Source: Planotetraspora silvatica (GTDB lineage Bacteria > Actinomycetota > Actinomycetes > Streptosporangiales > Streptosporangiaceae). Taken from it: a DNA stretch of 58,702 nt. A program made the position numbers and the translations under genes. The notes beneath the pieces are model-generated. The model searched no databases. It was not told the origin of the DNA and saw only the letters and a program-made list of their open reading frames with translations. Location: assembly GCF_016863315.1 (NCBI RefSeq), contig NZ_BOOQ01000061.1, forward strand, positions 1 through 58,702, in the 5' to 3' direction. Positions 34,923 to 54,060 of this stretch are shown one piece after another (positions within the stretch are counted from its first letter, which is position 1; each line of letters opens with the position of its first letter).

Positions 34923-34940
34923 CCCCTCACCCCTTTCCCC

Positions 34941-35152
34941 GTGATCATGCACACCTTCGTGCATGTGCCGTACGACCTGTGCATCCTCTCGGCGTGATCA
35001 TGCACACCTTCGGGTGTATGCCATGCGACCTGTGGAGATCCCGTTCGTGATCATGCGCGGGTTCGTGCGCATGCGGTCGGACCTGCGAAGCCTCGAGTCG
35101 TGATCATGCATTCCCGTACGCATGATTCCGAGTCGAGGCTTTTCGTCTGGAT
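34941..35152 (+). repeat. 53-bp phased tandem repeat array A
   Basis: GTGATCATG begins at 34941, 34994, 35047 and 35100: exact 53-bp steps. The core is GTGATCATGCACNNNTTCG, and the first three units share a later block TACGACCTG, GCGACCTG or GGACCTG. The last unit ends in an imperfect inverted half-copy (GCATGATTCCGAGTCGAGGC, about 35119-35138) that can pair with 35088-35109. The array starts 19 bp after the malic enzyme stop, behind CCTTTCCCC, and fills most of the 332-bp gap to the next gene. Confidence 0.9.
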
Positions 35153-35254
35153 GGCCCGTGGAAACTTGGGAATCCCTTGGGGGTTTCACGCTACGTGCTA
35201 TAAAGAGAGCTCTCCGTTACCTATCGGCTATGCCTGTCCTGGGTGAGGAGAGCG

Positions 35255-36607
35255 ATGCGACGCGAACCCAACCGGCTGCTCCAGCAGCACCTGGCCGAAG
35301 CGGGCCTGTCCCGCAAGGGGCTGGCGAGCCGGCTCAACGATCTCGGCTCCGCCCGTGGGCTGACCGGGATGAGATATGACCATGGTTCGGTGCTGCGCTG
35401 GGCGGGTGGCCAGCGCCCGCGCGATCCGGTTCCCGGCCTGCTGGCGGAGATCTTTTCGCTGCGGCTCGGGAGGCCGGTGTCCATGGAGGACATCGGCATG
35501 CCACGCGGAGCAGTCCCTCTCGACCTCGGACAGGAGTTCCCCCATTCGTGGGAGGAGGGTGTGGCAGGCGTGACAGCACTGTGGAAGGCCGACGTCGAGC
35601 GGCGCAGGTTCCTGCTCGATTCCACCTTCGCTCTGGGAGCGGGCTCCGCCGGGATCGCCCGCTGGCTGACGGTCCCGGCGCAGGACCGACTCTCCGCGAA
35701 CGGCCCGCGCAGGGTGGGCGTCTCCGACGTGACCGCGATTCACGAGGTCACGCGTTCGTTCAGTGAGCTGGACAACCGGTTCGGCGGCGGCAGCATTCGC
35801 GGACCGGTCGTGAAATATCTCGATACGGCGGTCGCGCCTCTCCTGCAGAACGGCTCGTACGGCGAGGCCACCGGGCGGGCGCTCGCCACCGCGGCGGCCG
35901 AGCTCACCCGGCTCGCCGGCTGGATGGCCTACGACCTCGAGCAGCACGGCCTGGCCCAGCGTTATCTGATCCAGGCGCTCGGGCTGGCCCGCGGCGCGGG
36001 CGACCACGGTCTCGGCGGGGAGATACTCGCCGGCATGAGCCACCAGGCCCTCTACATCGGGCAGCCCCGTCACGGCCTCGACCTCGCGCGGGCGGCCACG
36101 ATGGCGGCCACCCGGTCAGGGATCTTCTCCCTGCTGGCCGAGGCCCACGTGCAGGAGGCGCACGCGTTCGCCCAACTCGGCGACGGTCCGTCGTGCGCCG
36201 CCTCGCTGCACGAGGCGGAGAAGGCCTTCGACCGGCGCTCGCCGCAGGACGAGCCCCGATGGATCGCCTACTTCGACGAGGCCTATCTCGCGGCCAAGTC
36301 GGCCCACTGCCTCCGCGACCTCGGTGACGGGGCGGCGGCCGTACGGCATGCGCGGCGGTCGCTGCGGATGGACGGCCGGTTCGTGCGGGGCCGGATGTTC
36401 AACCTCTCGCTCCTGGCGTCCGCGCTCGTGCAGCAGGGCGACCTGGAGGAGGCGTGCATGGCGGCCGGCGCCGCGTTCGACCTCGCCAGGAGTCTCCAGT
36501 CCGTACGGACCAGGTCGTACGTCGACGACTTACGCAAGCGGCTCGAGCCGTACGCCGGAGAGCCGCAAGTGGCGGACCTGCTGGGCCGCAACGGCGTCCC
36601 CGTGTGA
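35255..36607 (+). CDS. XRE-like TPR transcriptional regulator
   Basis: 450-aa protein. The N-terminal 90 residues resemble the helix-turn-helix of actinobacterial XRE/NsdA-type regulators (LLQQHLAEAGLSRKGLASRL, GSVLRWAGGQRPRDPVP). The rest is helical TPR-like (YLIQALGLARGAGDHGLGGE, SLLAEAHVQEAHAFAQLG, AYFDEAYLAAKSAHCLRDLG). Streptomyces relatives influence antibiotic production and sporulation; the target here is unknown. ATG 35255 has GAGGAGA upstream, with a TATAAAG box near 35203. Confidence 0.82.
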   Translation: MRREPNRLLQQHLAEAGLSRKGLASRLNDLGSARGLTGMRYDHGSVLRWAGGQRPRDPVPGLLAEIFSLRLGRPVSMEDIGMPRGAVPLDLGQEFPHSWEEGVAGVTALWKADVERRRFLLDSTFALGAGSAGIARWLTVPAQDRLSANGPRRVGVSDVTAIHEVTRSFSELDNRFGGGSIRGPVVKYLDTAVAPLLQNGSYGEATGRALATAAAELTRLAGWMAYDLEQHGLAQRYLIQALGLARGAGDHGLGGEILAGMSHQALYIGQPRHGLDLARAATMAATRSGIFSLLAEAHVQEAHAFAQLGDGPSCAASLHEAEKAFDRRSPQDEPRWIAYFDEAYLAAKSAHCLRDLGDGAAAVRHARRSLRMDGRFVRGRMFNLSLLASALVQQGDLEEACMAAGAAFDLARSLQSVRTRSYVDDLRKRLEPYAGEPQVADLLGRNGVPV

Positions 36608-36761
36608 CGACCCGGGCTCCGGACGGGCATCCGGGAGGCCCGCTTTCGCCTGGTAGGGGAGTTAACGAGTTGCCAGATTTACCCAAGCAGGCGGAGTGGA
36701 GGCTTGAGCGGGAGCAGTCCGCCGGAGAGGCTGACGGCCATCCGACACTCGGGGGACCGAC

Positions 36762-37373
36762 ATGAAGCCACTCCTTGTTCTGCTGGCCGGCACGGCCATC
36801 GCCGCCGGCCCCACGGCCGCCTTCGCCGGGACGTTGCCGCCACCGCCGCAACCGTCCGGCGTGACGGCGACCACTCCGGTCGCCAAGGTCAATCCGGCCG
36901 ATCAGGTTGCTCCGGGGACTCAAGCCGCTTCGGGTGCTCGGCCGCTCCCGGGCGTCGCTCCGGCGCCTCCGGTCGCCCCCGCGGCTCAGGCGCCTCCGGG
37001 CGTGGCCGCAACCGCTCCGGCGGCTGTGACCAATCGGGTCACGAAGATCCGTCCCATCGCGACTCGCACGCGGGCGCTGATCCTGACCTACGCCGCCGGG
37101 GAGACGGCCAAGCCGGAGCGCTACTCGGTTCTGAACTGCCCGGCGACATTCGGGACCCTGCGTGAGCGAGACGAGGCGTGCGTCGTCGTGAACCGGGTCA
37201 ACGGCGACCTGACCCAGCTCAAGCCGAGCCAGAACACCTTCTGCCCCATGATGTTCAGCCCGGTCACGGTGACGGCCAACGGGATCTGGGACGGTCGCTA
37301 CGTCGACTTCAAGCACACCTTCGGCAACGCCTGCGAGATGCACTCGGCCACCGGCACCATCTTCGACATCTGA
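36762..37373 (+). CDS. subtilisin inhibitor-like (SSI, I16) secreted protease inhibitor
   Basis: 203-aa exported protein. A signal peptide (KPLLVLLAGTAIAAGPTAAFAG) is followed by a Pro/Ala/Val-rich linker of about 65 residues, then an SSI domain from about residue 100: LILTYAAGE, LNCPATFGT, ACVVVNRVNGDLTQL, and the reactive loop CPMMFSP with Met at P1, ending VDFKHTFGNAC. SSI proteins block extracellular subtilisins and trypsin-like enzymes. The long linker is unusual, since classic SSI has only a short propeptide. Confidence 0.9.
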   Translation: MKPLLVLLAGTAIAAGPTAAFAGTLPPPPQPSGVTATTPVAKVNPADQVAPGTQAASGARPLPGVAPAPPVAPAAQAPPGVAATAPAAVTNRVTKIRPIATRTRALILTYAAGETAKPERYSVLNCPATFGTLRERDEACVVVNRVNGDLTQLKPSQNTFCPMMFSPVTVTANGIWDGRYVDFKHTFGNACEMHSATGTIFDI

Positions 37374-37429
37374 TCGCGCCGGCCACGGTGGGCCGTGATC
37401 CGGCAGCGCGGGCAGAGTAATGTTCGGGC

Positions 37430-38392
37430 ATGTTCGCCGTGACCGCTACACAGACAGACCCGGACAACCCTCTCAAGGGACTGACGCTGGGTGACCGGCC
37501 CGAGCCGACGGTCCCCGAGGGCTGGACGACGATCACCGTCAAGGCCACCGCGCTGAACCACCATGACCTGTGGACGCTCAAGGGGGTGGGCATCAGCCAG
37601 GATCGCCTGCCCATCATCCTCGGATGCGACGCCGCGGGCGTGGACGAGAACGGCGACGAGGTCATCGTTCATTCGGTGATCGGCACCCCGATCAACGGGG
37701 ACGAGACCCTCGACCCGCGGCGCTCGCTCCTGTCGGAGACCTACGACGGAACGTTCGCGGAGAAGGTGACCGTTCCCGCGGGCAACGTGGTGCCCAAGCC
37801 CGCCGCGATCACGTTCGAGGAGGCGGCCTGCCTGCCCACCGCCTGGCTGACGGCCTATCGCATGCTCTTCGACAAGGCGGCCCTCCAGCCCGGCTCGACG
37901 GTCCTCGTCCAGGGAGCGGGAGGCGGCGTGGCCACCGCCCTCATCGCGCTCGGGCGGGCCGGAGGGTTCCGGATGTGGGCGACGAGCCGTTCGGAGGAGA
38001 AGCGGGCCAGGGCCCTCGAACTCGGCGCGGACCGGGTCTTCGAGACCGGAGCCCGCCTGCCCGAGCGGGTCGACGCCGTCATGGAGACCGTGGGCGAGGC
38101 GACCTGGGCGCACTCGCTGAGCTCGCTTCGTCCCGGCGGCAAGATCGTCATCAGCGGAGCGACGAGCGGCATGGTGGCCCCCACGCAGTTGGCCCAGGTG
38201 TTCTTCCTGCAGAAGTCGATCATCGGTTCCACGATGGGGACTCGGGATCAACTTGCCAGGCTCGCCGTCTTCCTGGAGCAGACCGGACTGCGGCCGGTGA
38301 TCGACCGCGTGCTCCCGCTGGCCCAGGCCGAGGACGGGTTCGCCGCGATGCACCGCGGCGACATCTTCGGAAAGATCGTCTTCACCGTGTGA
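37430..38392 (+). CDS. zinc-binding alcohol dehydrogenase/quinone oxidoreductase family protein
   Basis: 320-aa MDR enzyme: a GroES-like N-terminal half (ATALNHHDLWTLKGVGI, GCDAAGVDENGDEVIVHSV) and a Rossmann half with VLVQGAGGGVATALIALG. The catalytic zinc Cys and the structural four-Cys lobe are not evident, so it is probably of the NADPH quinone reductase type. Substrate unknown. It starts 56 bp after the SSI gene. Confidence 0.85.
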   Translation: MFAVTATQTDPDNPLKGLTLGDRPEPTVPEGWTTITVKATALNHHDLWTLKGVGISQDRLPIILGCDAAGVDENGDEVIVHSVIGTPINGDETLDPRRSLLSETYDGTFAEKVTVPAGNVVPKPAAITFEEAACLPTAWLTAYRMLFDKAALQPGSTVLVQGAGGGVATALIALGRAGGFRMWATSRSEEKRARALELGADRVFETGARLPERVDAVMETVGEATWAHSLSSLRPGGKIVISGATSGMVAPTQLAQVFFLQKSIIGSTMGTRDQLARLAVFLEQTGLRPVIDRVLPLAQAEDGFAAMHRGDIFGKIVFTV

Positions 38393-38411
38393 CCCGCGCC
38401 CGGCGTGCTCG

Positions 38412-38552
38412 CTACTCGCGTCCGCTGGTGGCGAGCGCGTCCGGGCTCCGGCCGCCTGGTTCGCGGGGATCAGGGTGGTTCTCCGGCGGCGCCTCACGCC
38501 GCGGCGGAGGTGGTTGCCGGAGAAACGGGTCGCGCCAGCCGTACGGACTCAT
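38412..38552 (-). CDS. 46-aa Pro/Arg-rich small protein
   Basis: Read directly from the DNA: ATG 38552, TAG 38412-38414, with AAAGGGG five bases before the start. The peptide begins MSPYGWRDPFLRQPPPP and is rich in Pro, Arg and Glu, probably disordered. It starts 27 bp after the padR stop on the same strand, so it could be the third gene of the DUF4097-padR operon. No homologue recognised. Confidence 0.4.
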   Translation of the reverse strand: MSPYGWRDPFLRQPPPPRREAPPENHPDPREPGGRSPDALATSGRE

Positions 38553-38579
38553 CGTCGCCCCTTTCCGCGAGCAGAGTGA

Positions 38580-39371
38580 TCAGGGGCGGAGGACGTCGCG
38601 GATGCGGGCCGCCGCCTCGTCGAGGATGACCTGGCACTCCGCCACGGTTTCGTCGGTGAGCACGCCCTCGCCGGCCTCCTGGCGGACCCGCCCGATGAAG
38701 TCGGCCAGCGCGCGCCCCAGTTCGGCGTCGTGGGCGAGCCCGCCCTGCCTGGCGAAGGACCGGCCGGTGATCGACCAGGCCTCCTCCCAGGTGCGGCGCC
38801 ACTCACGCTGCCAGCGATCGGCCTCGTTGCGCCACTGCTGGCGCTGGTGGCGCCACTCGTCCTTGTGCTGGCGCCATTCGTCCCTCGCCTGCTGACGCTG
38901 GCGCCTCCACTCTTCCTTCTGCTCGCGCCAGGCGTCGCGGGACTCGTGCGAGTGCGGGCCCCGGGATTCGCCCGCGGAGTCGTGGTTGATGTCCCTGGCC
39001 ATCTGGGTGAGCTCCTGGCGGAGGGAGCGCACGGTCTGCCGTACGTCCTCCTTGACCTCACGCGCGATGTCCTGGACGGATGCGGTGATCTCCCGCTCCA
39101 GCTCGGCGAGCTCGTCCATCCGCTCGTTGAGCTCGTTTCTGCCTCGATCGGTCAGGGTGAAGACCTTCTTGCCCTCCACGACCTCGTGGGTGACCAGGCC
39201 TTCCTCCTCCAGCCTCGCCAGGCGCGGGTAGATCGTGCCGGGCGAGGGGGAGTAGACGCCGAGGAAGCGGTCCTGCAGAAGCCGGATCACCTCGTAGCCG
39301 TGCCGTGGACTCTCCTCAAGGAGCTTCAGCAGGTACAGCCGGAGCCGTCCGTGGCCGAACACCGGGCTCAT
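38580..39371 (-). CDS. PadR-family regulator with Trp-rich coiled-coil
   Basis: 263-aa regulator. The N-terminal PadR winged helix is clear (LRLYLLKLLEESPRHGYEVI, SPGTIYPRLARLEEEGLV). A long helical part follows; between residues 148 and 199 Trp recurs at 148, 155, 166, 173, 180, 187, 191, 195 and 199, mostly in steps of 7 then 4, within Arg/Gln/Glu-rich sequence. The C-terminal 50 residues form another helical domain. It overlaps the DUF4097 gene by 4 bp (ATGA), so the two are coupled, and it may repress its own operon. Confidence 0.88.
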   Translation of the reverse strand: MSPVFGHGRLRLYLLKLLEESPRHGYEVIRLLQDRFLGVYSPSPGTIYPRLARLEEEGLVTHEVVEGKKVFTLTDRGRNELNERMDELAELEREITASVQDIAREVKEDVRQTVRSLRQELTQMARDINHDSAGESRGPHSHESRDAWREQKEEWRRQRQQARDEWRQHKDEWRHQRQQWRNEADRWQREWRRTWEEAWSITGRSFARQGGLAHDAELGRALADFIGRVRQEAGEGVLTDETVAECQVILDEAAARIRDVLRP

Positions 39372-40189
39372 GCTCTCTCCTCGTTCGCTGCGCCGCCGGA
39401 CTGCCTGCTCAGCAGGGTGACGTCGCCGGACACCGTGTTGGCCGACACACGGGCCATGCCGCCGCCGAGCCGTCCGGTGAGCGACCTCACTCCCGGGCGC
39501 TTCTGGTTGTCGAGGTCGGGGAAGGCCGACTCGACCCTGCCGGAACTCGAGCGCATGGACACGTCGCTGTCCACCGTCTGCTGGAGCCGTACGACCACGG
39601 AGCCGGACACGCTGTTCAGCGTGACATCGCCGGTGGGGGTGAGCTCCAGATCGGTGGTGATCCGGCCGGAGACGGTGTTGGCGCGCAGACGGTGCGGCAC
39701 CCCTGCGGCGACGGTCAGGTCACCGGAGATGCTGCTGAAGGACAGATTGCCCGCGAGGCCGCGGCTCTCCACCGATCCGGAGACCGTCTCGGCGTGAACG
39801 TCGCCGCTCACGCCGTCGAGGACGATTTCGCCGGAGACGCTCTTGACGTTCGTCCGCCCCTCGAAGCCGGCCACCACGGCGGACGCGGAGATCACGCCGA
39901 CCTGCACCGGGCAGTCCTTCGGCACGGTGAGCGTGAGCGTCGTGTTCCGCGAGCCGGGACGGAGCCAGCCGAGGATTCCGTCCCAGGTCAGGTCCTTGTA
40001 GGTGACGACGAGCCGGCCGTCGTCCTCGTGGGTGACCAGCAGGGGTGGCGTGCCGATGTCCGTCACCTCGAGACTGGGCGGCCCGTCACTGGCGAGCACT
40101 GCCAGCCGTCCGGCCACGATGCGGACGCTCAGTTGGCTGACAGGGGCGAACGTGAGCTGTTCGGGCTTCTCGATCGTCCAATGGGGCAT
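39368..40189 (-). CDS. DUF4097 beta-strand repeat protein
   Basis: 273-aa protein built of short beta repeats with the recurring motif SVSGxV (VKSVSGEIVLDGVSGDVHAE, ETVSGSVESRGL, SSISGDLTV, NTVSGRITTDL, NSVSGSVVV, NTVSGDVTLL), a right-handed beta-helix-like fold of the DUF4097/adhesin family. No signal peptide or membrane segment is seen, so it is probably cytoplasmic. It is the first gene of the DUF4097-padR operon. Confidence 0.88.
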   Translation of the reverse strand: MPHWTIEKPEQLTFAPVSQLSVRIVAGRLAVLASDGPPSLEVTDIGTPPLLVTHEDDGRLVVTYKDLTWDGILGWLRPGSRNTTLTLTVPKDCPVQVGVISASAVVAGFEGRTNVKSVSGEIVLDGVSGDVHAETVSGSVESRGLAGNLSFSSISGDLTVAAGVPHRLRANTVSGRITTDLELTPTGDVTLNSVSGSVVVRLQQTVDSDVSMRSSSGRVESAFPDLDNQKRPGVRSLTGRLGGGMARVSANTVSGDVTLLSRQSGGAANEERA

Positions 40190-40221
40190 TGCACGGCCCT
40201 TCCAACGCGAGGTCGCCGATC

Positions 40222-40300
40222 TCCGGGGGACCGGCAGCAGTGCTGTCTATAAACACGATATGTCGCGTTGCTGGAAAGTCAAGATGTATCGCGTTTCCGC
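40222..40300 (-). promoter_or_regulatory. promoter and possible PadR operator
   Basis: On the minus strand TTGACT (about 40278-40273), 16 bases, then TATCGT give a fair sigma-70 promoter for the DUF4097-padR operon. Two direct copies of TCGCGTT (40263-40269 and 40289-40295), each preceded by ATGT or ATGTA, flank the -35 box and are candidate regulator sites. Confidence 0.4.
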
Positions 40301-40307
40301 CGCCCGC

Positions 40308-40481
40308 TCAGTCGTCCTCGTCGAGCCGGGCCAGCCAGGTGGCCAGTCGTTCGACGGGGATCTCGAACTCCGGGTTGAGGTCGACGAACTCGCGCAGCCG
40401 CTCGGCCAGCCAGCTCACGCTGACCTCCTCGTCGCCGCGCCGGTCGACGAGTTCCTCGATGCCCCTGTCCGTGAAGTACAT
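40308..40481 (-). CDS. DUF6104 family small protein
   Basis: 57-aa protein read from the DNA, too short for routine calling. It begins MYFTDRGIEELVDRRGDEEV and ends with ATWLARLDEDD; the middle has SWLAERLREFVDLNPEFE. This is the conserved actinobacterial DUF6104 family of unknown function. ATG 40481 has GGAG seven bases upstream. It lies downstream of kgd on the same strand, past a terminator. Confidence 0.85.
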   Translation of the reverse strand: MYFTDRGIEELVDRRGDEEVSVSWLAERLREFVDLNPEFEIPVERLATWLARLDEDD

Positions 40482-40500
40482 GGTGTTGCTCCAATTACGG

Positions 40501-40535
40501 GGAAGTCCCCCACAGTGAAACCGTGGGGGACTTCC
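40501..40535 (-). terminator. terminator after kgd
   Basis: A perfect 13-bp stem, GGAAGTCCCCCAC with its complement, and a 9-nt loop. It starts 20 bp past the kgd stop and separates it from the DUF6104 gene. The T-run is poor. Confidence 0.75.
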
Positions 40536-40554
40536 GTGTGCGTACGCCTTCGGA

Positions 40555-44262
<3,708 letters not shown>

Positions 44263-45216: not shown

Positions 45217-45253
45217 GCGGTCCAGCCTACGGCCGGGCGCCGGGTCGCCATTA

Positions 45254-45288
45254 TTGCAAATGAAAGTTTGCAAAGAGGTCTTTGCGAA
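45254..45288 (+). promoter_or_regulatory. three phased TTGCAAA operator repeats
   Basis: TTGCAAA at 45254, TTGCAAA at 45268 and TTGCGAA at 45282, in exact 14-bp steps, 16-50 bp before the ATG of the winged-helix regulator. They suit dimers binding on nearly one face and probable autoregulation. The same gap serves the divergent B3/4 gene. Confidence 0.6.
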
Positions 45289-45303
45289 GTTAGGCTCACG
45301 GAC

Positions 45304-45864
45304 ATGAGTGATGAGGTCTTCCATGTGAGCGATCCGCGGACGCTCAAGGCGGTGGCTCATCCCCTCCGGGTGCGCCTGCTGGGAGCGCTGCGGTTCGACG
45401 GGCCCGCGACGGCCACCGAGCTGGGGGCCCGATTCGGGGAGAGCTCGGGATCGACGAGCTATCACCTGAGGCAGCTCGCCCGGTACGGCTTCGTCGTGGA
45501 GGACGCGGAGCAGCGGGATCGCCGCGAGCGGCGATGGCGGGCCGTCCATCGGATGACGTCGTGGAGCAACGCCGAGATGGCGGCGACCCCCGAGGGTCGT
45601 GAGGCGTCGGCCTTCTTGAGCCGGCGCCAGGTCGAGGTGCTGACGGACGCCGCGGAGACGTTCGAGCGGGATCGGGACTCCTGGGGTCCGGAGTGGATCG
45701 AGGTCGCCGGGATGTCCGACGACGTCGTACGGCTGTCGCCGGCGTCGGTGGCCTCGTTGTCCGAGCGGATGTGGGCCATGCTCCGGGAGGCGGCGGACCG
45801 GGACAAGGACGCTCCCGACGCCCGTCCCGTGTCGGTCTTCCTCGCCGCCCACCCCCGCCCCTGA
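45304..45864 (+). CDS. ArsR-like winged-helix regulator (HTH_20)
   Basis: 186-aa regulator. The N-terminal winged helix shows DPRTLKAVAHPLRVRLLGAL, TATELGARFGESSGSTSYHL and RQLARYGFVVEDAEQRDRRE. The C-terminal helical half is that of actinobacterial regulators commonly paired with MFS exporters. The frame is open far upstream, but ATG 45304 fits the domain. The MFS gene follows, but 353 bp of repeat array B separate the two. Confidence 0.88.
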   Translation: MSDEVFHVSDPRTLKAVAHPLRVRLLGALRFDGPATATELGARFGESSGSTSYHLRQLARYGFVVEDAEQRDRRERRWRAVHRMTSWSNAEMAATPEGREASAFLSRRQVEVLTDAAETFERDRDSWGPEWIEVAGMSDDVVRLSPASVASLSERMWAMLREAADRDKDAPDARPVSVFLAAHPRP

Positions 45865-45879
45865 CCGCCCCCTTTCCCC

Positions 45880-46243
45880 GTGATCATGCACGGGTTCGTG
45901 GATGGGGCCGCTGAGCTGGCCCTTGACCGCGCGTGATCATGCACAGGTTCGGCGGGATGTGCTGTGAGCTGGGCGAAAGCCGTACGTGATCATGCGCACA
46001 TTCGGCAAAACCATGCGTGACCTGCGCCGACATCCTCCGTGATCATGCAATCCGGTCCGGGGCCCGGACTAAGTGCATGATCACAAACCGAGAAACCGCA
46101 GACCAGGGGTCGTGCCGCCGAAGGTGTGCATGATCACGCAACGTGAAGCCGCTGCTCAGCCGGGTCATCGCCGAACATGTGCATGATCACGGCGGGAGCC
46201 GTGGCAGGTGAGAGGCCATGATCAAGAAAGTGAGCATGATCAC
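45880..46243. repeat. 53-bp phased repeat array B, head to head
   Basis: Direct copies of GTGATCATGC start at 45880, 45933, 45986 and 46039; inverted copies (GCATGATCAC) end at 46084, 46137, 46190 and 46243. All steps are exactly 53 bp. The junction 46039-46084 is a hairpin whose ends are GTGATCATGC and GCATGATCAC and whose middle pairs GTCCGG with CCGGAC. The first unit is preceded by CCTTTCCCC, as in array A. The last inverted copy lies inside the MFS reading frame. Confidence 0.92.
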
Positions 46244-47504: not shown

Positions 47505-47557
47505 AACGTTGTTCGGGTGACAGTGCAGAATCGGGGGGTGCGAAAGGGGTGCGGCCG

Positions 47558-48616
47558 ATGAGCAAGCCGACCGTGACGGCGGCCAACGAGGAACAACGCG
47601 CGGCATGGCTCGCCCGGGTCCTCCCGGAGGTCGAGTGCGTGCGGCCGGGATTGTGGTCGATCCCGGTCCCGATTCCGATCAATCCACTGCGGTACGTCCT
47701 GGTGTACGCGCTGGAGATCCCGGACGGCGTCGTGATCATCGATGCCGGATGGAACACCGACGAGGCCTACGACGCCCTCGTGGCCGGACTGCGGACGGCC
47801 GGCTATGAGATCACCGATGTCAAGGCGGTGCTGGTCACTCACATCCATCCCGATCATTACGGCCTGGCCGGGCGTATCCGGGAGGTCTCCGGGGCCTGGA
47901 TCGGCCTGCATCCGGAAGACGCCCGGCTGGTCCGCGAGCGCTACGACGACTCGGCGATCCAGGAGTTGGTCGTCCGGGAGCGGAGCCTGCTGCTCCGATG
48001 CGGCGTGCCGGAGATGACGGCCCAGGAACTGGCCGGGGCCTCCATGATGCTGCGCAGTTTCGTGACGATGGCCGTGCCGGATCGCCTGATCGAGGACGGC
48101 GACCGGCTGGATCTGCCCGGATGGGACCTTCGCGCCATCTGGACCCCGGGGCACTCGCCCGGCCATCTCTGCTTCGTGGAGCCCGATCGCCGGCTGCTGT
48201 TCTCCGGCGACCACGTGCTGGCCAAGATCACTCCGATGGTGGCGGTGCATCCCCAGTCGACGGCGAACCCGCTCGCCGACTATCTCGACGCCCTCAGGAA
48301 CGTCGGGAAGCTCGACGTGGACGAGGTGCTGCCGGCTCATGAGTTCCGGTTCCTCGAACTGGGCGAGCGGGTGGACTACGTGATCAGTCACCACGAGGAG
48401 CGGCTGGCGGAGGTCGAGCGCGTCGTCGCCGAGACGGGCGGCAGCACGTGCTGGGATCTCGCGACCCGGCTGACCTGGTCGAGGCCGTGGGAGACCATCC
48501 CGCCCCACATGCGGCGTGGCGCCAACAACGAGACGCTGGCCCATCTCGTCTGGCTGGAGGCGCGCGGCCAGGTCTCACGGGTGCCGGGTGAGCCGGACCT
48601 GTGGCTGCCCGCATAG
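47558..48616 (+). CDS. MBL-fold metallo-hydrolase
   Basis: 352-aa metallo-beta-lactamase-fold enzyme. Metal ligands are THIHPDHYGLAG (HxHxDH), the later GHSPGHLCFVEP His and the Asp in LFSGDHVL. A C-terminal helical extension (HHEERLAEVERVV, TLAHLVWLEARGQV) resembles that of thioesterase-type or LACTB2-like members. ATG 47558 has AAGGGG eight bases upstream. It begins 53 bp after the MFS gene. Confidence 0.88.
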   Translation: MSKPTVTAANEEQRAAWLARVLPEVECVRPGLWSIPVPIPINPLRYVLVYALEIPDGVVIIDAGWNTDEAYDALVAGLRTAGYEITDVKAVLVTHIHPDHYGLAGRIREVSGAWIGLHPEDARLVRERYDDSAIQELVVRERSLLLRCGVPEMTAQELAGASMMLRSFVTMAVPDRLIEDGDRLDLPGWDLRAIWTPGHSPGHLCFVEPDRRLLFSGDHVLAKITPMVAVHPQSTANPLADYLDALRNVGKLDVDEVLPAHEFRFLELGERVDYVISHHEERLAEVERVVAETGGSTCWDLATRLTWSRPWETIPPHMRRGANNETLAHLVWLEARGQVSRVPGEPDLWLPA

Positions 48617-48643
48617 GATTCCCCGCAAATCAAGTAGGAAATG

Positions 48644-48672
48644 TTGACTATGTGCGCCGATGCGTTTAGCGT
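48644..48672 (+). promoter_or_regulatory. promoter of the leader peptide and flavin monooxygenase operon
   Basis: TTGACT (48644-48649), a 17-bp spacer and TAGCGT (48667-48672). Transcription starting about seven bases on would begin at or next to the A of ATG 48680, making the leader ORF leaderless. Confidence 0.65.
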
Positions 48673-48679
48673 CAGCGGC

Positions 48680-48760
48680 ATGAGTCAGGACACGTTCTTG
48701 GCCCGGCCCGTTCGCGGGGACGCCGGCCGCGTAGTCGGCGGCCGGTGTCGATCTCGGTGA
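48680..48760 (+). CDS. 26-aa leaderless leader peptide with late Cys codon
   Basis: ATG 48680 to TGA 48758-48760, read from the DNA. The peptide begins MSQDTFLARPVRG and ends GGRCRSR. There is no ribosome site, but a good promoter places the transcript start at the ATG. The single Cys codon (TGT 48746-48748) follows directly on the 3' arm of a hairpin. In mycobacteria leaderless short ORFs with Cys codons sit before sulfur genes and act as attenuators; this ORF has the same setting, though only one Cys. Confidence 0.6.
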   Translation: MSQDTFLARPVRGDAGRVVGGRCRSR

Positions 48761-48820
48761 GAAACCCGCGATCGGACCGGCTCCGGGTCCCACTGGAGCG
48801 TCGCTCTTCCACGTGGAGGA
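48723..48820 (+). promoter_or_regulatory. leader hairpins and sequestered ribosome site (candidate attenuator)
   Basis: Four hairpins are visible. 48723-48745: CCGGCCGC/GCGGCCGG, perfect 8-bp stem within the leader ORF. 48749-48773: CGATC/GATCG plus CGG/CCG around the leader stop. 48774-48790: GGACC/GGTCC, which competes with GCTCC/GGAGC (48780-48799). 48805-48820: TCTTCC/GGAGGA with loop ACGT, which covers the GGAGG ribosome site of the monooxygenase gene. Confidence 0.5.
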
Positions 48821-48824
48821 CCAC

Positions 48825-50201
48825 TTGTCCAGGAAACTGCACCTCAACGCCTTCCTGATGGGTGTGGGGCACCATGAGGCGGCTTGGCGCCACCCCCGCA
48901 CCGACCCCCTGCGACTCACCGACGTCCGGCACTTCCAGAACCTCGCCCAGATCGCCGAGCGCGGCCGGCTCGACTCGGTGTTCTTCGCCGACGGCCTCGC
49001 GTTGCAGGGCGATGTCCGGCACAACGCACTCGGCGGGCTGGAGCCGCTGACGCTGTTGTCGGCGCTCGCCGCCGTGACCGACCACGTCGGCCTGATCGCG
49101 ACGGTCTCGACGACGTACAACGAGCCCTTCCACGTCGCCCGGAGGTTCGCCTCGCTGGACCACATCAGCGGCGGCAGGGCGGGATGGAACATCGTGACCT
49201 CGGCGGGCGAGGCCGAGGCGCACAACTTCGGCATCGAACGGCCTGCCCACCGGGACCGCTACGAGCGGGCCGCCGAGTTCCTCGAGGTCGCCACCAGGCT
49301 CTGGGACAGCTGGGAGGACGACGCGGTGGTCGGAGACCGGGACGCGGGCATTTACGCCGACATCGCCAAGATCCATCAGGTCGACCACGCGGGCGCGCAC
49401 TTCCGGGTGAAGGGCCCGCTCAACATCCAGCGCCCGCCGCAGGGCCGTCCGCTGCTGGTCCAGGCGGGCTCGTCCGACGACGGCAGGGACTTCGCCGCCC
49501 GTCACGCCGAGGCCGTCTTCACCGCGCAGCAGACGCTGGAGGAGGGGCAGGAGTTCTACGCCGACATCAAGGCCCGGGCGGCCCGGTACGGCAGGCCGCC
49601 GGAGAACGTGGTCATCCTCCCCGGCATCTCGCCCATCCTCGGCGGGACCGAGCGGGAGGCGCTCCGGCTGGAGAAGGAGCTGGAGGACCTCATCATCCCG
49701 GCGTACGGCGTGGCCCAGCTGTCCAACATCCTCGGCGTCGACCTGTCGGGACACCCGCTGGACGAGCCGCTGCCACACGTGCCGGTCGAGACCGAAGGCC
49801 AGCAGAGCCGCCTCAAGCTCGTGACCGACCTGGCGCGGCGGGAGGGCCTCAGCCTCCGCGAGCTCATCGCCAGGCTCGCGGGCGGCCGCGGGCACCGGGT
49901 GCTCGCCGGGACCCCCGAGCAGATCGCCGACCAGATCCAGGAGTGGTTCGAGAACGGCGCGGCGGACGGTTTCAACATCATGCCGCCCGTCCTCCCGTCC
50001 GGCCTCGAGGACTTCGTCGACCACGTGGTGCCGGAACTACAGGCCCGAGGGCTGTTCAGGCACGAGTACGAGGGCCGGACGCTGAGGGAGAACTACGGCC
50101 TGCCCCGGCCCGCGAGCAGGTACGCCTCGGGCCCCGCCGGTGAGATCGCAGGCGGGAACGCCCCTGAGAACGCGGACGGCACTGTGGCGGTCGCCTCGTG
50201 A
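48825..50201 (+). CDS. LLM-class flavin-dependent monooxygenase (NtaA/SnaA/DszA/SfnG-like)
   Basis: 458-aa FMNH2-dependent monooxygenase. The start SRKLHLNAFLMGVGHHEAAW and the blocks TDPLRLTDVRHFQNLAQIAE, DSVFFADGL, HVARRFASLDHISGGRAGWN and PLLVQAGSSDDGRDFA are typical of the two-component NtaA/SnaA/DszA group, which cleaves C-S, N- or related bonds, often to gain sulfur. TTG 48825 lies five bases after GGAGG and matches homologue starts. Two flavin reductases follow, which would supply FMNH2. Confidence 0.9.
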   Translation: MSRKLHLNAFLMGVGHHEAAWRHPRTDPLRLTDVRHFQNLAQIAERGRLDSVFFADGLALQGDVRHNALGGLEPLTLLSALAAVTDHVGLIATVSTTYNEPFHVARRFASLDHISGGRAGWNIVTSAGEAEAHNFGIERPAHRDRYERAAEFLEVATRLWDSWEDDAVVGDRDAGIYADIAKIHQVDHAGAHFRVKGPLNIQRPPQGRPLLVQAGSSDDGRDFAARHAEAVFTAQQTLEEGQEFYADIKARAARYGRPPENVVILPGISPILGGTEREALRLEKELEDLIIPAYGVAQLSNILGVDLSGHPLDEPLPHVPVETEGQQSRLKLVTDLARREGLSLRELIARLAGGRGHRVLAGTPEQIADQIQEWFENGAADGFNIMPPVLPSGLEDFVDHVVPELQARGLFRHEYEGRTLRENYGLPRPASRYASGPAGEIAGGNAPENADGTVAVAS

Positions 50202-50253
50202 CCGCGAACCGGTCGGGCCTCACGACGGCCCTCGCACGACGGAGGAGGACGCG

Positions 50254-50871
50254 ATGAGCATCGTGACGCTGGTGGGGAACCCACGGGAAGGATCCCGGAC
50301 ACTCGCCATCGCGGTACGCGCCGCCGAGGCGGTGGCGAAACGACTGCGACAGGCCCCTGGCAACGAAGGCGCCGCAAGCCCATCGGCGGGGACGCGCCCC
50401 GGTCCTGACGGCTTCGCGGCACTGAATGACGTGGTGGACCTGGCCGCTCTCGCACCGCACCTCCTGGCCCGCGAGCCCGGGCCGGGCGTCGAGTCGGCGC
50501 TGAAGCTGGTCCTGGACGCCGAGGTCCTCGTGGTCGCCAGCCCCACCTACAAGGGGACCTACACGGGACTGCTCAAGGTGTTCCTCGACAGGCTTCCCCA
50601 CCAGGCACTGGCGGGGAAGGCGGCGTTGCCGCTGCTGGTCATGGGTGATCCCAAGCACTCGCTCGCGGTGGAGGTTCACCTGAGGCCCGTGCTGGTCGAG
50701 CTGGGCGCCTTCGTGCCTACTCCCGGGCTGGTGGTGCTGGAGTCGGTGGTCCCGCGTGATTTCGGGCCGGATTCCGGGGCTGTCGCCGTACCGGAACTCG
50801 ACGATCTGCTGGACGGCTGGGCCGGTCAGGTGGCTCCGCGACTGTCGTTCCGCCAGGAGGTTTCAGCATGA
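50254..50871 (+). CDS. NAD(P)H-dependent FMN reductase
   Basis: 205-aa flavodoxin-fold reductase (SsuE/MsuE group). It has IVTLVGNPREGSRTLAIAVR (FMN phosphate loop), VLVVASPTYKGTYTGLLKVF and LPLLVMGDPKHSLAVE. It probably feeds reduced FMN to the monooxygenase upstream. ATG 50254 has GGAGGAG upstream. Its stop overlaps the 26-aa ORF start (ATGA). Confidence 0.9.
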   Translation: MSIVTLVGNPREGSRTLAIAVRAAEAVAKRLRQAPGNEGAASPSAGTRPGPDGFAALNDVVDLAALAPHLLAREPGPGVESALKLVLDAEVLVVASPTYKGTYTGLLKVFLDRLPHQALAGKAALPLLVMGDPKHSLAVEVHLRPVLVELGAFVPTPGLVVLESVVPRDFGPDSGAVAVPELDDLLDGWAGQVAPRLSFRQEVSA

Positions 50872-50948
50872 CTGACGGAATCAGCGCGATGGACGGACTC
50901 CTTGTGACGGATGAGGGCACGCGACCGGTTCGGAGGTCCCGGCGATGA
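50868..50948 (+). CDS. 26-aa coupled small ORF
   Basis: ATG 50868 has an ideal site (GGAGG, seven bases upstream). It overlaps the FMN reductase stop by 4 bp, and its own TGA (50946-50948) overlaps the ATG of the next gene by 4 bp. The peptide begins MTDGISAMDGLLVTDEGTR and ends in an Arg-rich tail. It may be a real small protein, a coupling device, or a relic of a lost gene. I recognise no homologue. Confidence 0.5.
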   Translation: MTDGISAMDGLLVTDEGTRPVRRSRR

Positions 50949-51646
50949 CCGCCATGCACGACTCGGCCCCGGACGCTCCCGTCCCGGTGCCGCTCCGGCT
51001 CGTGTCGTCCGGGAACCTCGTGTCGTCTGAGAACCCTGTGCCCTCCCAGAACCGCGTGTCGTCCGAGAACCCTGTGCCCTCCCAGAACCTCGTGTCGTCT
51101 GAGAACCGCGTGTCGTCCGGCGATGTCGACCGTCCGGGGAACGGATCGTCCGCCGAGCAGGCCGTACCGGTCGGCGGCGACGAGTTCCGCCGGGCGCTCG
51201 CCGTGCACGCCGCCGGAGTGGTGGTGGTCACGGCGCGGCCTGAGGACGTGCCGGTGGGATTGACGGCCACCTCGTTCTCGTCGGTCAGCCTTGAGCCGCC
51301 GCTGGTGTCGTTCTACGTCGCGCAGTCGTCGACGACCTGGCCGTCGTTGCGGCTGGCCGATCATTTCGCGGTGAACGTACTCGCCGGCGACCAGGCGGAC
51401 ATCGCGGCCAGATTCGCGAAGAAGGACATCGACCGCTTCGCCCATCCGACCAGATGGGGCGACGGCCCGCAGGGCGTGCCGTTGCTGCACGACGTGTCGG
51501 CGCACCTGATCTGCCGCCCCCACCACACGGTCGAGGTCGGCGATCATGTCCTCGTGGTCGGCCTGGTGACCTCGACCAGCGTGAGCTCGGCGGGGCGTCC
51601 CCTGATCTACCACAAGGGCAGGTTCGGGCGGTTCCTGCCGTACTGA
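50945..51646 (+). CDS. flavin reductase family protein with repetitive N-terminus
   Basis: 233-aa protein. The C-terminal 165 residues are a HpaC-like flavin reductase domain (FRRALAVHAAGVVVVTARPE, GLTATSFSSVSLEPPLVSFY, FAVNVLAGDQADIAARFA, LICRPHHTVEVGDHVLVVG). The first 65 residues are extra and contain hexapeptide repeats VSSENP/VPSQNR encoded by 18-bp tandem repeats. ATG 50945 has GGAGG eight bases upstream. It closes the monooxygenase operon and may be a second FMN reductase. Confidence 0.9.
   Translation: MTAMHDSAPDAPVPVPLRLVSSGNLVSSENPVPSQNRVSSENPVPSQNLVSSENRVSSGDVDRPGNGSSAEQAVPVGGDEFRRALAVHAAGVVVVTARPEDVPVGLTATSFSSVSLEPPLVSFYVAQSSTTWPSLRLADHFAVNVLAGDQADIAARFAKKDIDRFAHPTRWGDGPQGVPLLHDVSAHLICRPHHTVEVGDHVLVVGLVTSTSVSSAGRPLIYHKGRFGRFLPY
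51002..51127 (+). repeat. seven 18-bp coding tandem repeats
   Basis: Units start at 51002, 51020, 51038, 51056, 51074, 51092 and 51110. Types are GTGTCGTCYGAGAACCNN (VSSENx) and GTGCCCTCCCAGAACCNN (VPSQNx), partly alternating. They encode a disordered Ser/Asn-rich spacer before the flavin reductase domain; copy number is likely to vary between strains. Confidence 0.9.
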
Positions 51647-51691
51647 TCCGGAGGGTGGGCCGTTCCGAGGGGGGACGGCCCACCCGACCCT

Positions 51692-52750
51692 TCATGCGAG
51701 GCGGACGGTGCCGCGTCCCGTCGCGAGCGGCAGGTCGAGGATCGTCCGGATGCCCGCCGGCGCCGCGCACACGGCCGCGATCGAGTTGACCGCGTGGGCG
51801 GCGGCGCCCGCCAGCCCGTGCGCCACCTCGTCGATGGTGATCGCCATGGTGGGCCGGCCCTCGATGTGGATGGCGAATCCGGGAGCGGGCCACCGCGGCA
51901 CCTTCTCCGCGTCGGCCTTGTAGACGCATTCGACGGTCATGAACGGCATGTTCTTCACCAGGCCGGAGAAGACCCACCGGGACGCGCAGACCGTGCCCGG
52001 CCGCACCACGCCCGCGGCGATCTCGAACTCCTCCGTGGCCAGTTCGAACTCGTCGCTCTCCTCGATCTCGTCGAGCACGACGCCGAGTGTGGACGCCACC
52101 AGCTGGACGCTCTCGGTGAACAGCGACCGCTGGTAGGCCCGGAAGGGGCGCACCGCTTCCGCGTAGTCCTTGGGCGCGCGGGAGAAGCCGATCAGGTCGG
52201 TGACGATCTGCCGGGACGGATGGCCGCGGTAGTCCGAGGACTCGCGCACGTAGATGTGGTCGAGCCGGTCGGACAGCCCGGTCAGCGCGAGCGGCAGCAG
52301 GTCGCTCATGAAGCCGGGGTTGATGCCCGTCCCGTGCAGTGAGGTCCCGCCGCGGGCGCACGCGGCCTCCAGCCGCTCGACCACGCCGGGGCCGTACGCC
52401 TGGGGGTAGACGAATCCGGTGGTGGTGATGACGTTCTTGCCCGACGACAACAGCGCGCAGATCGTCTCGAGGTCGGTCGCGGGGTCACCGCCGAAGTACG
52501 ACGCGGGAAGCGGCATGTGGAGGACGCAGTCGGCCTGCGTGGCCATCACCTGGTCGACGTCGTCGGTGCAGACGACACCCGCCGTGCCCAGGCCCACCAG
52601 TTCTCCCGCGTCGAGCCCGACCTTGTCGGGGTCGTAGACGAGAGCTCCCGCCAGCTCGAACTCCGGACGATTGATCACATTCCGCAGCGCGTATCCCCCG
52701 ACTGCGCCGGTGGCCCACTGGACCACGCGCAGGGGTGGAGTTAAGGGCAT
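51692..52750 (-). CDS. DapB-like NAD(P)-dependent oxidoreductase (2,4-diaminopentanoate dehydrogenase-like)
   Basis: 352-aa protein. A Rossmann N-terminus (LRVVQWATGAVGGYALRNV) and the motifs ELAGALVYDPDKVGLDAGEL, GKNVITTTGFVYP and GTGINPGFMSDLLPLALTGL are typical of the DapB-like/2,4-diaminopentanoate dehydrogenase group, common in actinomycetes near acyl-CoA and steroid genes. The true substrate is unknown. It is divergent from the SDR gene across 213 bp. Confidence 0.85.
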   Translation of the reverse strand: MPLTPPLRVVQWATGAVGGYALRNVINRPEFELAGALVYDPDKVGLDAGELVGLGTAGVVCTDDVDQVMATQADCVLHMPLPASYFGGDPATDLETICALLSSGKNVITTTGFVYPQAYGPGVVERLEAACARGGTSLHGTGINPGFMSDLLPLALTGLSDRLDHIYVRESSDYRGHPSRQIVTDLIGFSRAPKDYAEAVRPFRAYQRSLFTESVQLVASTLGVVLDEIEESDEFELATEEFEIAAGVVRPGTVCASRWVFSGLVKNMPFMTVECVYKADAEKVPRWPAPGFAIHIEGRPTMAITIDEVAHGLAGAAAHAVNSIAAVCAAPAGIRTILDLPLATGRGTVRLA

Positions 52751-52963
52751 GCGTGGCCTCCAGCCAGGTCAGCTCTGGGCGGGGGCCGTGCTGGGAGGGG
52801 TGTCGTCGTTGACCCACGCCCGTCCGGGGGACCAGAACTATAGCAGAAATTCACATGATTGATCACGATGCGCGGTGTTCTGTTGCCGACTGCTACCGCT
52901 TTCAGGCCGGAGAGCTATTGTTCAGGCAACTAGAACCTTGTTCTCCTCCGAAAGGTGGGCGTC

Positions 52964-53860
52964 ATGCCGGATCTCAGGTTCGACGGACAGGTAGCGGTCG
53001 TGACGGGGGCAGGGCACGGGCTCGGCCGTTCGCACGCGCTCCTGCTCGCGGAGCGGGGGGCCAAGGTCGTCGTCAACGACCTCGGCGGCGCGCTCGACGG
53101 CACCGGCCCGTCCTCCGGTCCTGCCGCCGACGTGGCCGAATTGATCGTCAAGAACGGCGGCGAGGCCATCGCCAGCGGGGACAACGTCGCCACCCCCGAG
53201 GGTGCCCAGGCGATCGTCCAGGCCGCGATCGACACCTTCGGCCGGGTGGACATCGTGGTCAACAACGCCGGGATCCTTCGGGACAAGTCGCTGGGCAAGA
53301 TGAGCGTCGAGGAGTTCGACGCGGTGCTGGCCGTCCATGTGCGCGGCTCGTTCCTGGTCACCCGCGCGGCGTTCCCGCACATGAAGGAGCAGGCGTACGG
53401 GAGGGTCGTCAACACGTCCTCGCCCGCCGGCCTGTTCGGCAACTTCGGCCAGGTCAACTACTCGACCGCGAAGATGGGCCTGGTGGGCCTCACCAAGTCC
53501 GTCGCCATCGAGGGCGCGCGCGCCAACATCAAGGCCAACGCGATCGCGCCGATCGCCTGGACCCGGATGACCGAGGCGCTGTTCCCGGCCGAACTCGAGG
53601 ACAAGCTCACCCCGGAGCGGATCAGCCCGCTGGTCGCATTTCTCGCGCACGAGAGTTGTGAGACGACCGGTGAGGTGTTCTCCGTGGGCGGCGGTCGGGT
53701 CGCGCGCGTGTTCGTCGCCGAGGGCCCGGGTTGGCGTACGGACGACCTCACGATCGAGGCGATCCGCGACAACTGGGACGCCGTGATGACGGAGGAGCCC
53801 CACCTTCAGCCCACCACGCTGGGGCGGCAGGCCACCGCGTCCATGCAGGCCATGCTGTAG
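52964..53860 (+). CDS. SDR-family oxidoreductase (3-hydroxyacyl-CoA dehydrogenase type)
   Basis: 298-aa short-chain dehydrogenase. It has VAVVTGAGHGLGRSHALLLA (NAD site), VVNDLGGALDGTG, NNAGILRDKSLGKM and the catalytic NYSTAKMGLVGL (YxxxK, with Ser in NTSSPAG). The sequence matches the dehydrogenase unit of MFE-2-like beta-oxidation proteins, with a C-terminal tail (GEVFSVGGGRVARVFVAEGP) but no hydratase or SCP2 domain. ATG 52964 has AAAGG eight bases ahead. Confidence 0.9.
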   Translation: MPDLRFDGQVAVVTGAGHGLGRSHALLLAERGAKVVVNDLGGALDGTGPSSGPAADVAELIVKNGGEAIASGDNVATPEGAQAIVQAAIDTFGRVDIVVNNAGILRDKSLGKMSVEEFDAVLAVHVRGSFLVTRAAFPHMKEQAYGRVVNTSSPAGLFGNFGQVNYSTAKMGLVGLTKSVAIEGARANIKANAIAPIAWTRMTEALFPAELEDKLTPERISPLVAFLAHESCETTGEVFSVGGGRVARVFVAEGPGWRTDDLTIEAIRDNWDAVMTEEPHLQPTTLGRQATASMQAML

Positions 53861-53920
53861 GCCACGTCCTCGATACCGCGGCGGGCGCCGGGCATGTCGA
53901 GGCGCCTGCCGCGGCCCACG

Positions 53921-54060
53921 CGCATGATCACGCTCGGGGTTCGCGCAGGTCGTACGGCATGCCCGCGAATCTGTGCATGATCACGCTCGAGGTTTGCGCA
54001 GGTCGTACGGCGTGGCGCCGAACCTGTGCATGATCACGGCCAGGATTTGTGCAGGATCAC
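53921..54060 (-). repeat. 53-bp phased repeat array C
   Basis: Inverted cores GCATGATCAC end at 53931, 53984 and 54037, again exactly 53 bp apart. Read on the minus strand, two units share GTGATCATGCACA, TTCG, then CGTACGACCTGCGC, the same internal block seen in array A. A variant core GTGATCCTGCAC (54050-54061, minus strand) holds the stop codon of the GH65 gene. The array lies in the convergent gap between the SDR and GH65 genes. Confidence 0.9.

What the first reader, a model, noticed from the sequence alone, without database searches (positions are those of the whole stretch)
34941..54060. Interspersed intergenic repeat family with exact 53-bp phasing
At three loci (34941-35152, 45880-46243, 53921-54060) the core GTGATCATGCAC recurs at steps of exactly 53 bp, with no exception among the full copies. 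A second partly conserved block, TACGACCTG, follows about 30 bp after the core in many units, while the rest varies. 53 bp is close to five helical turns, so the TGATCA palindromes would all face one side of the helix. This suggests an array read by a DNA-binding protein (nucleoid organiser, partition or terminator factor) or a spreading element. Arrays A and C directly follow gene ends, in the sense of the preceding gene. I know of no named family with these features.
Basis: partly seen in the sequence, partly recalled or inferred. Interest (0 to 1): 0.85.

Follow-up and report, generated by a model that had tools for sequence, protein, structure and literature searches.

The report
Phased DNA repeat arrays between genes
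Hundreds of short DNA motifs, set exactly 53 bases apart in directional arrays between genes, stay almost unchanged while the DNA around them drifts, so they are probably docking sites for a still unknown DNA-binding protein of actinobacteria.

Summary
The genome (Planotetraspora) holds 698 exact GTGATCATGCAC, control 0; 74 of 75 exact 10-mer cores in 400 kb lie outside gene calls or within 12 bp of their ends. In samples of seven genomes 212 of 256 close core spacings are exactly 53 bp. Arms of 2-5 cores occur singly or as inward-facing pairs (43 of 43 multi-arm intervals), mostly at gene 3' ends, rarely between divergent genes. Between sister species the core diverges 0.9%, unit interiors 16%, array-free convergent spacers 13%: core and step are under selection. 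53-bp arrays occur in four genera of the family, plus two pairs in a fifth, with drifting cores; in one species position 12 is switched in 52 of 52 sampled units. GTGATCATGCA with a lineage-specific second half recurs in four other actinobacterial families; where spacing was read there (G432, G371) it is not fixed at 53. RNA structure, Rfam and REP transposase do not explain it. Best reading: platforms for an unidentified double-strand DNA-binding protein, working like BIME/REP clusters but not members. Protein and job are not shown; A/T helical phasing was not significant.

The parts
34941..35111 (+). Array A: one arm, four cores at 34941, 34994, 35047, 35100; the last core lies in an imperfect inverted repeat (GCCTCGAGTC...GAGTCGAGGC) followed by TTTT
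   Evidence: first core 18 bp after the stop of the malic-enzyme gene call 33759-34922
34973..34979 (+). Second, partly conserved block (YGACCWG, unit positions 33-39) of the first unit of array A
45880..46050 (+). Array B, first arm: four + cores at 45880, 45933, 45986, 46039; starts 15 bp after the stop of an ArsR-like HTH gene call (45325-45864)
46039..46084 (.). Array B centre: the two terminal cores form a 46-bp inverted pair (GTGATCATGCA...TGCATGATCAC)
46073..46243 (-). Array B, second arm facing the first: four - cores at 46073, 46126, 46179, 46232; overlaps the start of the MFS gene call 46218-47504, to which it is antisense
53920..54037 (-). Array C: one arm, three phased - cores (53920-53931, 53973-53984, 54026-54037) behind the stop of a GH65 gene on the - strand
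54049..54060 (-). Off-phase core of array C (GTGATCCTGCAC, 23 bp from its neighbour); overlaps the stop codon of the GH65 gene call 54057-56423

Best explanation
The arrays are extragenic docking platforms for a dedicated double-strand DNA-binding protein. Each site is a two-part sequence of about 19-20 bp: a first helical turn shared across several actinobacterial families (GTGATCATGCA; GTGATCTTGCA/G in some genera) and a second, lineage-specific turn (most often CAGGTTCG here, GAAGTTCG in one sister species, SRTCYTGGG in another family). In Streptosporangiaceae a weaker further contact (YGACCWG, then A/Y at 45-46) goes with a fixed 53-bp step, so protein units would load head to tail along an arm and two arms would face each other across a core palindrome. 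Most likely job: an architectural or topological node placed in gene-free space, preferentially behind genes and between converging genes, as has been proposed for BIME clusters (recalled). Shown: copy number, extragenic placement, 53-bp step, inward pairing, selection on core and step, genus and species dialects.
For: Core conserved and interiors free at orthologous loci: G000 versus P. mira, 43 gapless units, positions 1-10 differ at 4/430, TTCG 8/172, 33-39 20/301, 20-32 91/559, 47-53 48/301; choosing the units in P. mira instead gives the same counts, and no arm core of 62 or 63 has more than one change. Array-free convergent spacers differ by 13.0%, four-fold sites by 6.6%. Step kept: seven gap openings inside the array spans of 11 loci, one of them a whole unit, seven loci without any, where the 242 substitutions in the units alone predict about 32 at the 0.133 gaps per substitution of array-free convergent spacers. 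Top column links are between neighbours and fold scores are inconsistent; antisense arms 0/70 core changes (three arms, 7 units), sense 4/360. Same 53-bp step with other cores in further genera. Dialect switch in G001: G at position 12 in 52 of 52 sampled units, C in 67 of 67 in G000; at one orthologous locus the switch is in place. Multi-arm intervals face inward in 43 of 43. In G432, another family, 42 half-sites chosen by exact GTGATCATGCA keep TC.TGGG in the second turn (35 to 41 of 42 per position).
Against: No reader protein was identified. A/T phasing at 10.6 bp is not significant (p 0.19 interior, 0.13 whole unit). The second block is exact in only 94 of 254 units. Several distant column pairs slightly exceed the shuffled maximum (for example 42-51, 54% paired against 39% expected), though orthologous units inflate such links. 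In G432 and G371 the spacing is not 53. Arrays can be absent at orthologous convergent junctions and are shorter in P. phitsanulokensis, so they are dispensable locally. In G001 samples none of 11 convergent but 3 of 34 divergent intervals carry arms.
Confidence: 0.5

Rival explanations
1. A REP/MITE/MIRU-like selfish repeat family, old and now mostly immobile, that prefers gene ends as landing sites; the arrays grow and shrink by recombination between units.
For: Extragenic, hundreds of copies, inward palindromes; three convergent junctions with arrays in G105 and none in G000; the first core contains the stop codon TGA in 14 of 81 sense arms; unit number changes; lineage-specific sequence as in REP families.
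Against: Selection on cores of copies that sit at the same place in two species; units of different loci average 0.35-0.40 identity over variable positions and 3 of 1407 pairs exceed 0.7 in the 20 two-arm loci compared; Y1 (RAYT-type) transposase absent from seven of ten array genomes tested, this one included.
Confidence: 0.27
2. RNA-level 3'-UTR element: terminator or transcript-end stabiliser, read from the sense strand.
For: Sense bias 81 to 38; terminal core pairs form hairpins (mean z -1.93 for 49 paired-arm ends); array A ends in an imperfect hairpin with TTTT; units of G000 and G001 fold somewhat better than column shuffles (z -3.4, -2.3).
Against: 28 single-arm ends show no hairpin excess (z -0.18); units of the other five genomes fold no better than shuffles (z -1.1 to 1.1); antisense arms equally conserved; Rfam none; an array can fill a same-strand gap (G000 C2 235270-235440), and array B's second arm runs into the start of the next gene.
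Confidence: 0.12
3. Polar transcription roadblock: protein bound to the array stops RNA polymerase leaving a gene.
For: Arms face the gene they follow in convergent spacers; 19 of 72 convergent, 23 of 273 tandem and 1 of 155 divergent intervals carry arms in the G000, G003 and G004 samples (summed).
Against: Arrays between same-strand genes with little room for another promoter; 53 of those 72 convergent intervals lack arms; antisense arms.
Confidence: 0.08
4. A dialect-type exchange signal, like the DNA uptake sequences of Neisseriaceae (recalled comparison).
For: Short invariant part plus species-specific part, inverted pairs at gene ends.
Against: Uptake sequences are common inside genes (recalled), here 1 of 75; density is about one core per 12 kb; fixed 53-bp arrays have no place in that model.
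Confidence: 0.03

Closest known systems
REP / BIME clusters and REPINs (GTAG- and CGTC-tagged extragenic palindromes; PMC3733652, twelve found passages read; other REP papers seen as listing only)
   Same: Extragenic, high copy number, inverted pairs, a constant end plus a family-specific part, clusters; CGTC REPs too lack a dedicated transposase according to that paper
   Different: No GTAG or CGTC tag; directional tandem arms at a fixed 53-bp step; units of an arm are direct repeats; RAYT-type transposase missing in seven of ten array genomes; the main text of the survey has no occurrence of 'actinobact'
MIRU of mycobacteria (recalled; one search, listed one review that was not opened)
   Same: Tandem units in intergenic gaps, overlap with stop codons, unit number varies (recalled)
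   Different: Here fast-drifting interiors around an invariant core, inward-facing pairs, several genera with core dialects
TAACTGA direct repeats of Beggiatoaceae (PMC4679880, abstract read)
   Same: Abundant intergenic direct repeats of a short core in a bacterial genome
   Different: Heptamer, mostly just upstream of start codons, thought to act on translation
BldC binding to direct repeats (PMC5859096, abstract and headings read)
   Same: Actinobacterial protein loading head to tail on DNA direct repeats: a model for how such arrays could be read
   Different: Studied at regulated promoters; site and spacing differ (recalled); not linked to these arrays by any result here

Membership tests
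REP/BIME/REPIN | Extragenic location, high copy number | tested here: met
   698 exact copies; 74 of 75 cores outside gene calls or within 12 bp of their ends
REP/BIME/REPIN | GTAG or CGTC tag at one end of a short palindrome | tested here: not met
   Site begins GTGATC, usually after C; units of an arm are direct repeats; tags as described in PMC3733652
REP/BIME/REPIN | RAYT (Y1) transposase in the genome, for the GTAG type | tested here: not met
   PF01797 absent in G000, G002, G003, G004, G105, G120, G115; present in array genomes G001, G242, G243
Rfam RNA family | Match to a covariance model | tested here: not met
   0 matches up to E 1 in window 34800-54300
Structured 3'-UTR RNA | Compensatory changes or fold better than control | tested here: not met
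   Six strongest column links are neighbours, several distant ones slightly exceed the null with modest pairing excess; fold z -3.4, -0.8, -2.3, -1.1, 0.4, 0.3, 1.1 in seven genomes
Intrinsic terminator | Hairpin at the end of each arm | tested here: not met
   28 single-arm ends, mean z -0.18, 11% below -2, the same share as 112 interior windows; 49 paired ends mean z -1.93
Phased protein-binding array | Fixed spacing with conserved site and free interior | tested here: met
Phased protein-binding array | Helix-phased A/T signal between sites | tested here: inconclusive
   Fifth harmonic highest of 12 in four of seven genomes but p 0.13-0.19 by column shuffles
Phased protein-binding array | A protein that binds the site | not testable with these tools
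   No proteome-wide comparison or binding data at hand
MIRU | Homology to mycobacterial MIRU units | not tested
   Only recalled

The most novel reading that the evidence does not exclude
Actinobacteria carry an undescribed two-part DNA address (invariant GTGATCATGCA plus a fast-changing second half) read by an unknown two-domain protein; in Streptosporangiaceae the protein assembles on 53-bp phased, inward-facing arrays that mark gene boundaries genome-wide, and a change in its specificity has rewritten hundreds of sites in step in single species, making it a bacterial counterpart of a chromosomal boundary system.
Probability: 0.3. Interest if true: 0.9.

Novelty: new variant of a known kind. 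Interest (0 to 1): 0.76.

Why it matters
A short core is held nearly unchanged at hundreds of places while its surroundings drift about as fast as free spacers, with base-exact spacing kept across genera. That points to an abundant, unknown chromosome-binding factor in actinobacteria. The species dialects give a natural experiment on how a DNA-binding protein and hundreds of its sites change together, and the gene-end placement lets one ask what the arrays do to transcription and supercoiling at converging genes.

Tried and rejected
Local accident: rejected. Structured RNA: tested on units and arm ends, not supported. RAYT mobilisation: rejected for seven of ten carriers tested. Perfect long hairpin between the two arms: partner-arm units of the same rank average 0.44, 0.48, 0.40 and 0.32 identity over variable positions against 0.38, 0.40, 0.38 and 0.35 for unrelated loci. 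Helical A/T phasing: not significant. Helical quantisation of the inverted pair: pair length peaks at 35 bp (21 of 106) and at 24 bp in G120 (4 of 5), but the Rayleigh value is similar at every period tried from 9.5 to 12, so it shows a preferred length only. Phage carriage: 7 stretches with one match each of a 17-base pattern in the viral collection, near chance by my own estimate; those loci were not read. Faster-than-neutral drift of interiors (16% against 6.6% four-fold sites) looked like hypermutation until array-free convergent spacers gave 13%. Bias from choosing units with intact cores: checked by choosing them in the other species, same result. A -35/-10 reading of block plus core was considered, no test run. 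Literature: eight searches. The core and its GTGATCTTGCA variant as strings gave 54 papers; the 20 listed are on unrelated subjects by title, the other 34 were not seen. No paper describing this family was seen in any listing; subscription journals are largely missing from the library.

Limits: gene calls are from my own codon-score caller trained on G000. The G000, G003 and G004 stretches are contiguous, not picked locus by locus, but largely orthologous to each other, and G000 includes the window, which was chosen for the finding. Stretches of G001, G002, G105, G243 and G120 were chosen because they hold arrays, so fractions from them are inflated. Of 13 array loci on the G000 stretch, 11 could be compared with P. 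mira and 8 with G002.
Full report
What is there. The window holds three arrays of the core GTGATCATGCAC. A and C are single arms; B is two arms that face each other. Within an arm cores stand 53 bp apart. C has one extra core 23 bp from its neighbour.

How common. The whole genome has 360 + 338 exact cores, control 0. Of 60 genomes, the four congeners have 165, 231, 652 and 623 exact cores; the other 55 have 0 to 6. In 400 kb of contig C2, 13 loci with two or more cores were found. Of 75 exact 10-mer cores there, 74 lie outside gene calls or within 12 bp of their ends, although calls cover 87% of the stretch; the remaining one is 34 bp inside the end of a call. Twenty loci on C2 are 31 kb apart on average, somewhat more regular than random (CV 0.63, p 0.019, one contig, positions taken from the capped list). 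The genus name rests on named relatives and on contig lengths: G003 equals P. kaengkrachanensis, G004 P. mira, G002 P. phitsanulokensis.

Anatomy. From 55 units: GTGATCATGC, R at 11, C at 12, R at 13, TTCG at 16-19, YGACCWG at 33-39, A/Y at 45-46, C at 53. The block at 33-39 is exact in 94 of 254 units of seven genomes (summed). Arms have 2 to 5 cores (119 placed arms: 21, 55, 27 and 16 with 2, 3, 4 and 5). The last full unit often reads GCGC, and the terminal core often forms an inverted pair with the opposite arm (by eye). The commonest inverted pair is 35 bp long (21 of 106). In samples of seven genomes 212 of 256 close spacings are exactly 53.

Place. Of 123 arms in seven genomes, 81 are sense and 38 antisense to the gene behind them, 3 lie at edges and 1 inside a gene call. 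In 14 of the 81 sense arms the stop codon TGA lies in the first core. In the G000, G003 and G004 stretches plus the window, arms lie in 19 of 72 convergent, 23 of 273 tandem and 1 of 155 divergent intervals (summed; denominators are intervals of 100 bp or more, one counted tandem case of the whole set has a 45-bp gap). Intervals with two or three arms face inward in 43 of 43 over eight genomes, not all independent; a lone opposite core before an arm exists at G000 C2 346764. In the G001 sample 0 of 11 convergent, 9 of 62 tandem and 3 of 34 divergent intervals have arms, against the general trend. Flanking genes in the window have unrelated functions: malic enzyme, ArsR-like HTH, MFS transporter, SDR, GH65.

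Selection. At 11 comparable loci between G000 and P. mira, 43 gapless units differ at 0.9% of positions 1-10, 18.1% of 11-15, 4.7% of TTCG, 16.3% of 20-32, 6.6% of 33-39 and 15.9% of 47-53. The units were chosen for intact cores in G000; choosing them in P. mira gives the same counts, and none of 62 or 63 arm cores has more than one change in the other species. Array-free spacers differ by 13.0% (16 convergent), 4.6% (80 tandem) and 3.1% (35 divergent); four-fold sites by 6.6%. So interiors drift about like free convergent spacers and the core does not. Inside the array spans of the 11 loci there are seven gap openings (1, 31, 3, 53, 14, 4 and 1 bp), where about 32 would be expected for the 242 substitutions in the units alone. 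Against G003, 12 of 13 loci keep an array, unit number changes, and at one locus the arm serves the other gene. In P. phitsanulokensis (G002) 8 of 13 loci could be mapped: one array is lost, six of the other seven are shorter; those stretches had been chosen for array pairs, so losses may be undercounted.

DNA or RNA. The six strongest column links are between neighbours; several distant ones (for example 47-51, 42-51, 22-30, 31-50) slightly exceed the shuffled maximum of 0.161 with at most a modest pairing excess (42-51: 54% against 39%), and orthologous units in that set inflate such links. Columns 44-45 read mostly RA or TY, a choice that is the same on either strand. Fold scores against column shuffles are z -3.4, -0.8, -2.3, -1.1, 0.4, 0.3 and 1.1 for seven genomes: not consistent. 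Antisense arms are as conserved as sense arms (0/70 in three arms, 4/360). Single-arm ends have no hairpin excess. Rfam gives nothing. I therefore place the function at the DNA level.

Relatives. The pattern TGATCNTGC-N43-GTGATCNTGC occurs in 15 of 341 family genomes, controls 0: Planotetraspora 5 of 5 (129 to 675), G105 (383; its contig length equals that of 'Planotetraspora sp. A-T 1434'), G242 and G243 (40, 188), five of 15 g69 species (4 to 79), G130 (2), G134 (1, not like the others). The listed pairs of the others (at most 11 per genome) mostly show a GACC-like block. Positions 11-19 differ by lineage; commonest words are ACAGGTTCG in G000 and G003 (20 of 67, 16 of 51), AGAAGTTCG in G001 (32 of 52), AGTTTGTCG in G120 (9 of 19), AGAAACTCG in G243 (4 of 17). 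In G001 position 12 is G in 52 of 52 sampled units; in G000 C in 67 of 67. At the one locus checked, G000, G003 and G001 share the place and G001 has its own dialect. A looser half-site, TGATCATGCANNNNTTCG, occurs at least once in 42 of 341 genomes but 8 or more times only in Planotetraspora, G074 (89), G075 (106), G078 (30) and G120 (8). In what was read of g56 (G074, G075) and g58 (G078) it forms single or alternating palindromes without 53-bp arms.

Beyond the family. A class-wide scan (246 genomes) found 11 with a 53-bp pair; outside f1 only G432 (5) and G491 (1) look like this family, six others are single matches that do not. G432 has 287 exact CGTGATCATGCA, its congener G388 none, G371 35 including 22-bp satellites. 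Inverted pairs of GTGATCATGCA occur in 8 of 394 class genomes from five families: f1, f30, f32, f33 and f42 (the pattern is palindromic, so forward and reverse counts are the same places). The six genomes outside f1 each show their own extension in the listed places, even within one genus (G491 CGTTCGCCCC, G579 CGCCAGCGCA). In G432, 42 half-sites chosen by exact GTGATCATGCA keep a second block TC.TGGG, in clusters of mixed spacing; one of six clusters in 120 kb runs out-out-in-out rather than simply inward. So the first turn is shared and the second is a dialect; the fixed 53-bp step was found only in Streptosporangiaceae.

Origin. Units of different loci average 0.35-0.40 identity over variable positions and 3 of 1407 pairs exceed 0.7 in the 20 two-arm loci compared, so recent copies are rare. 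Yet three convergent junctions carry arrays in G105 and gene-call gaps of 16, 19 and -4 bp without arrays in G000; one of the three also has an extra gene-like stretch in G105 (by eye). Arrays therefore arise or vanish at gene ends over genus-scale time. RAYT-type transposase is absent from seven of ten array genomes including this one.

Reading. The simplest account of invariant core, exact step, free interior, strand-independent conservation and species-wide dialect switch is a sequence-specific protein that loads on phased double-strand sites. Which protein, and whether the arrays serve topology, insulation or something else, is not shown. A roadblock or terminator role is weakened by arrays between same-strand genes and by antisense arms. 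The literature searches listed no description of the family.

Noticed in passing
G371 C9:47885-48247 (L308): A 22-bp satellite GTGATCATGCAGCCGCTCGGCC of many identical units built on the same core
   Followed up: partly
G399 and G414 (family f33), places: GTGATCATGCA palindromes of 60-bp total length with species-specific stems (5 of 5 listed places in G399, 4 of 5 in G414; the pattern allowed at most 62)
   Followed up: no
G000 C2 (L031-L050) against P. mira (L260-L277): Array-free convergent spacers diverge about three times as fast as tandem and four times as fast as divergent ones (13.0, 4.6, 3.1%)
   Followed up: partly
G002 (P. phitsanulokensis), loci orthologous to G000 C2 arrays: Of eight mapped arrays one is lost and six are shorter, while most remaining cores are intact
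   Followed up: partly
G000 C2:235270-235440 (L042): An array fills the whole gap between two same-strand genes that look by eye like a xanthine dehydrogenase iron-sulphur subunit and an amidohydrolase
   Followed up: no
window 35255-36607: Gene call next to array A has no Pfam match up to E 0.001
   Followed up: no
G001 sample (L234-L246): Array placement differs from the other species: none in convergent, some in divergent intervals
   Followed up: no
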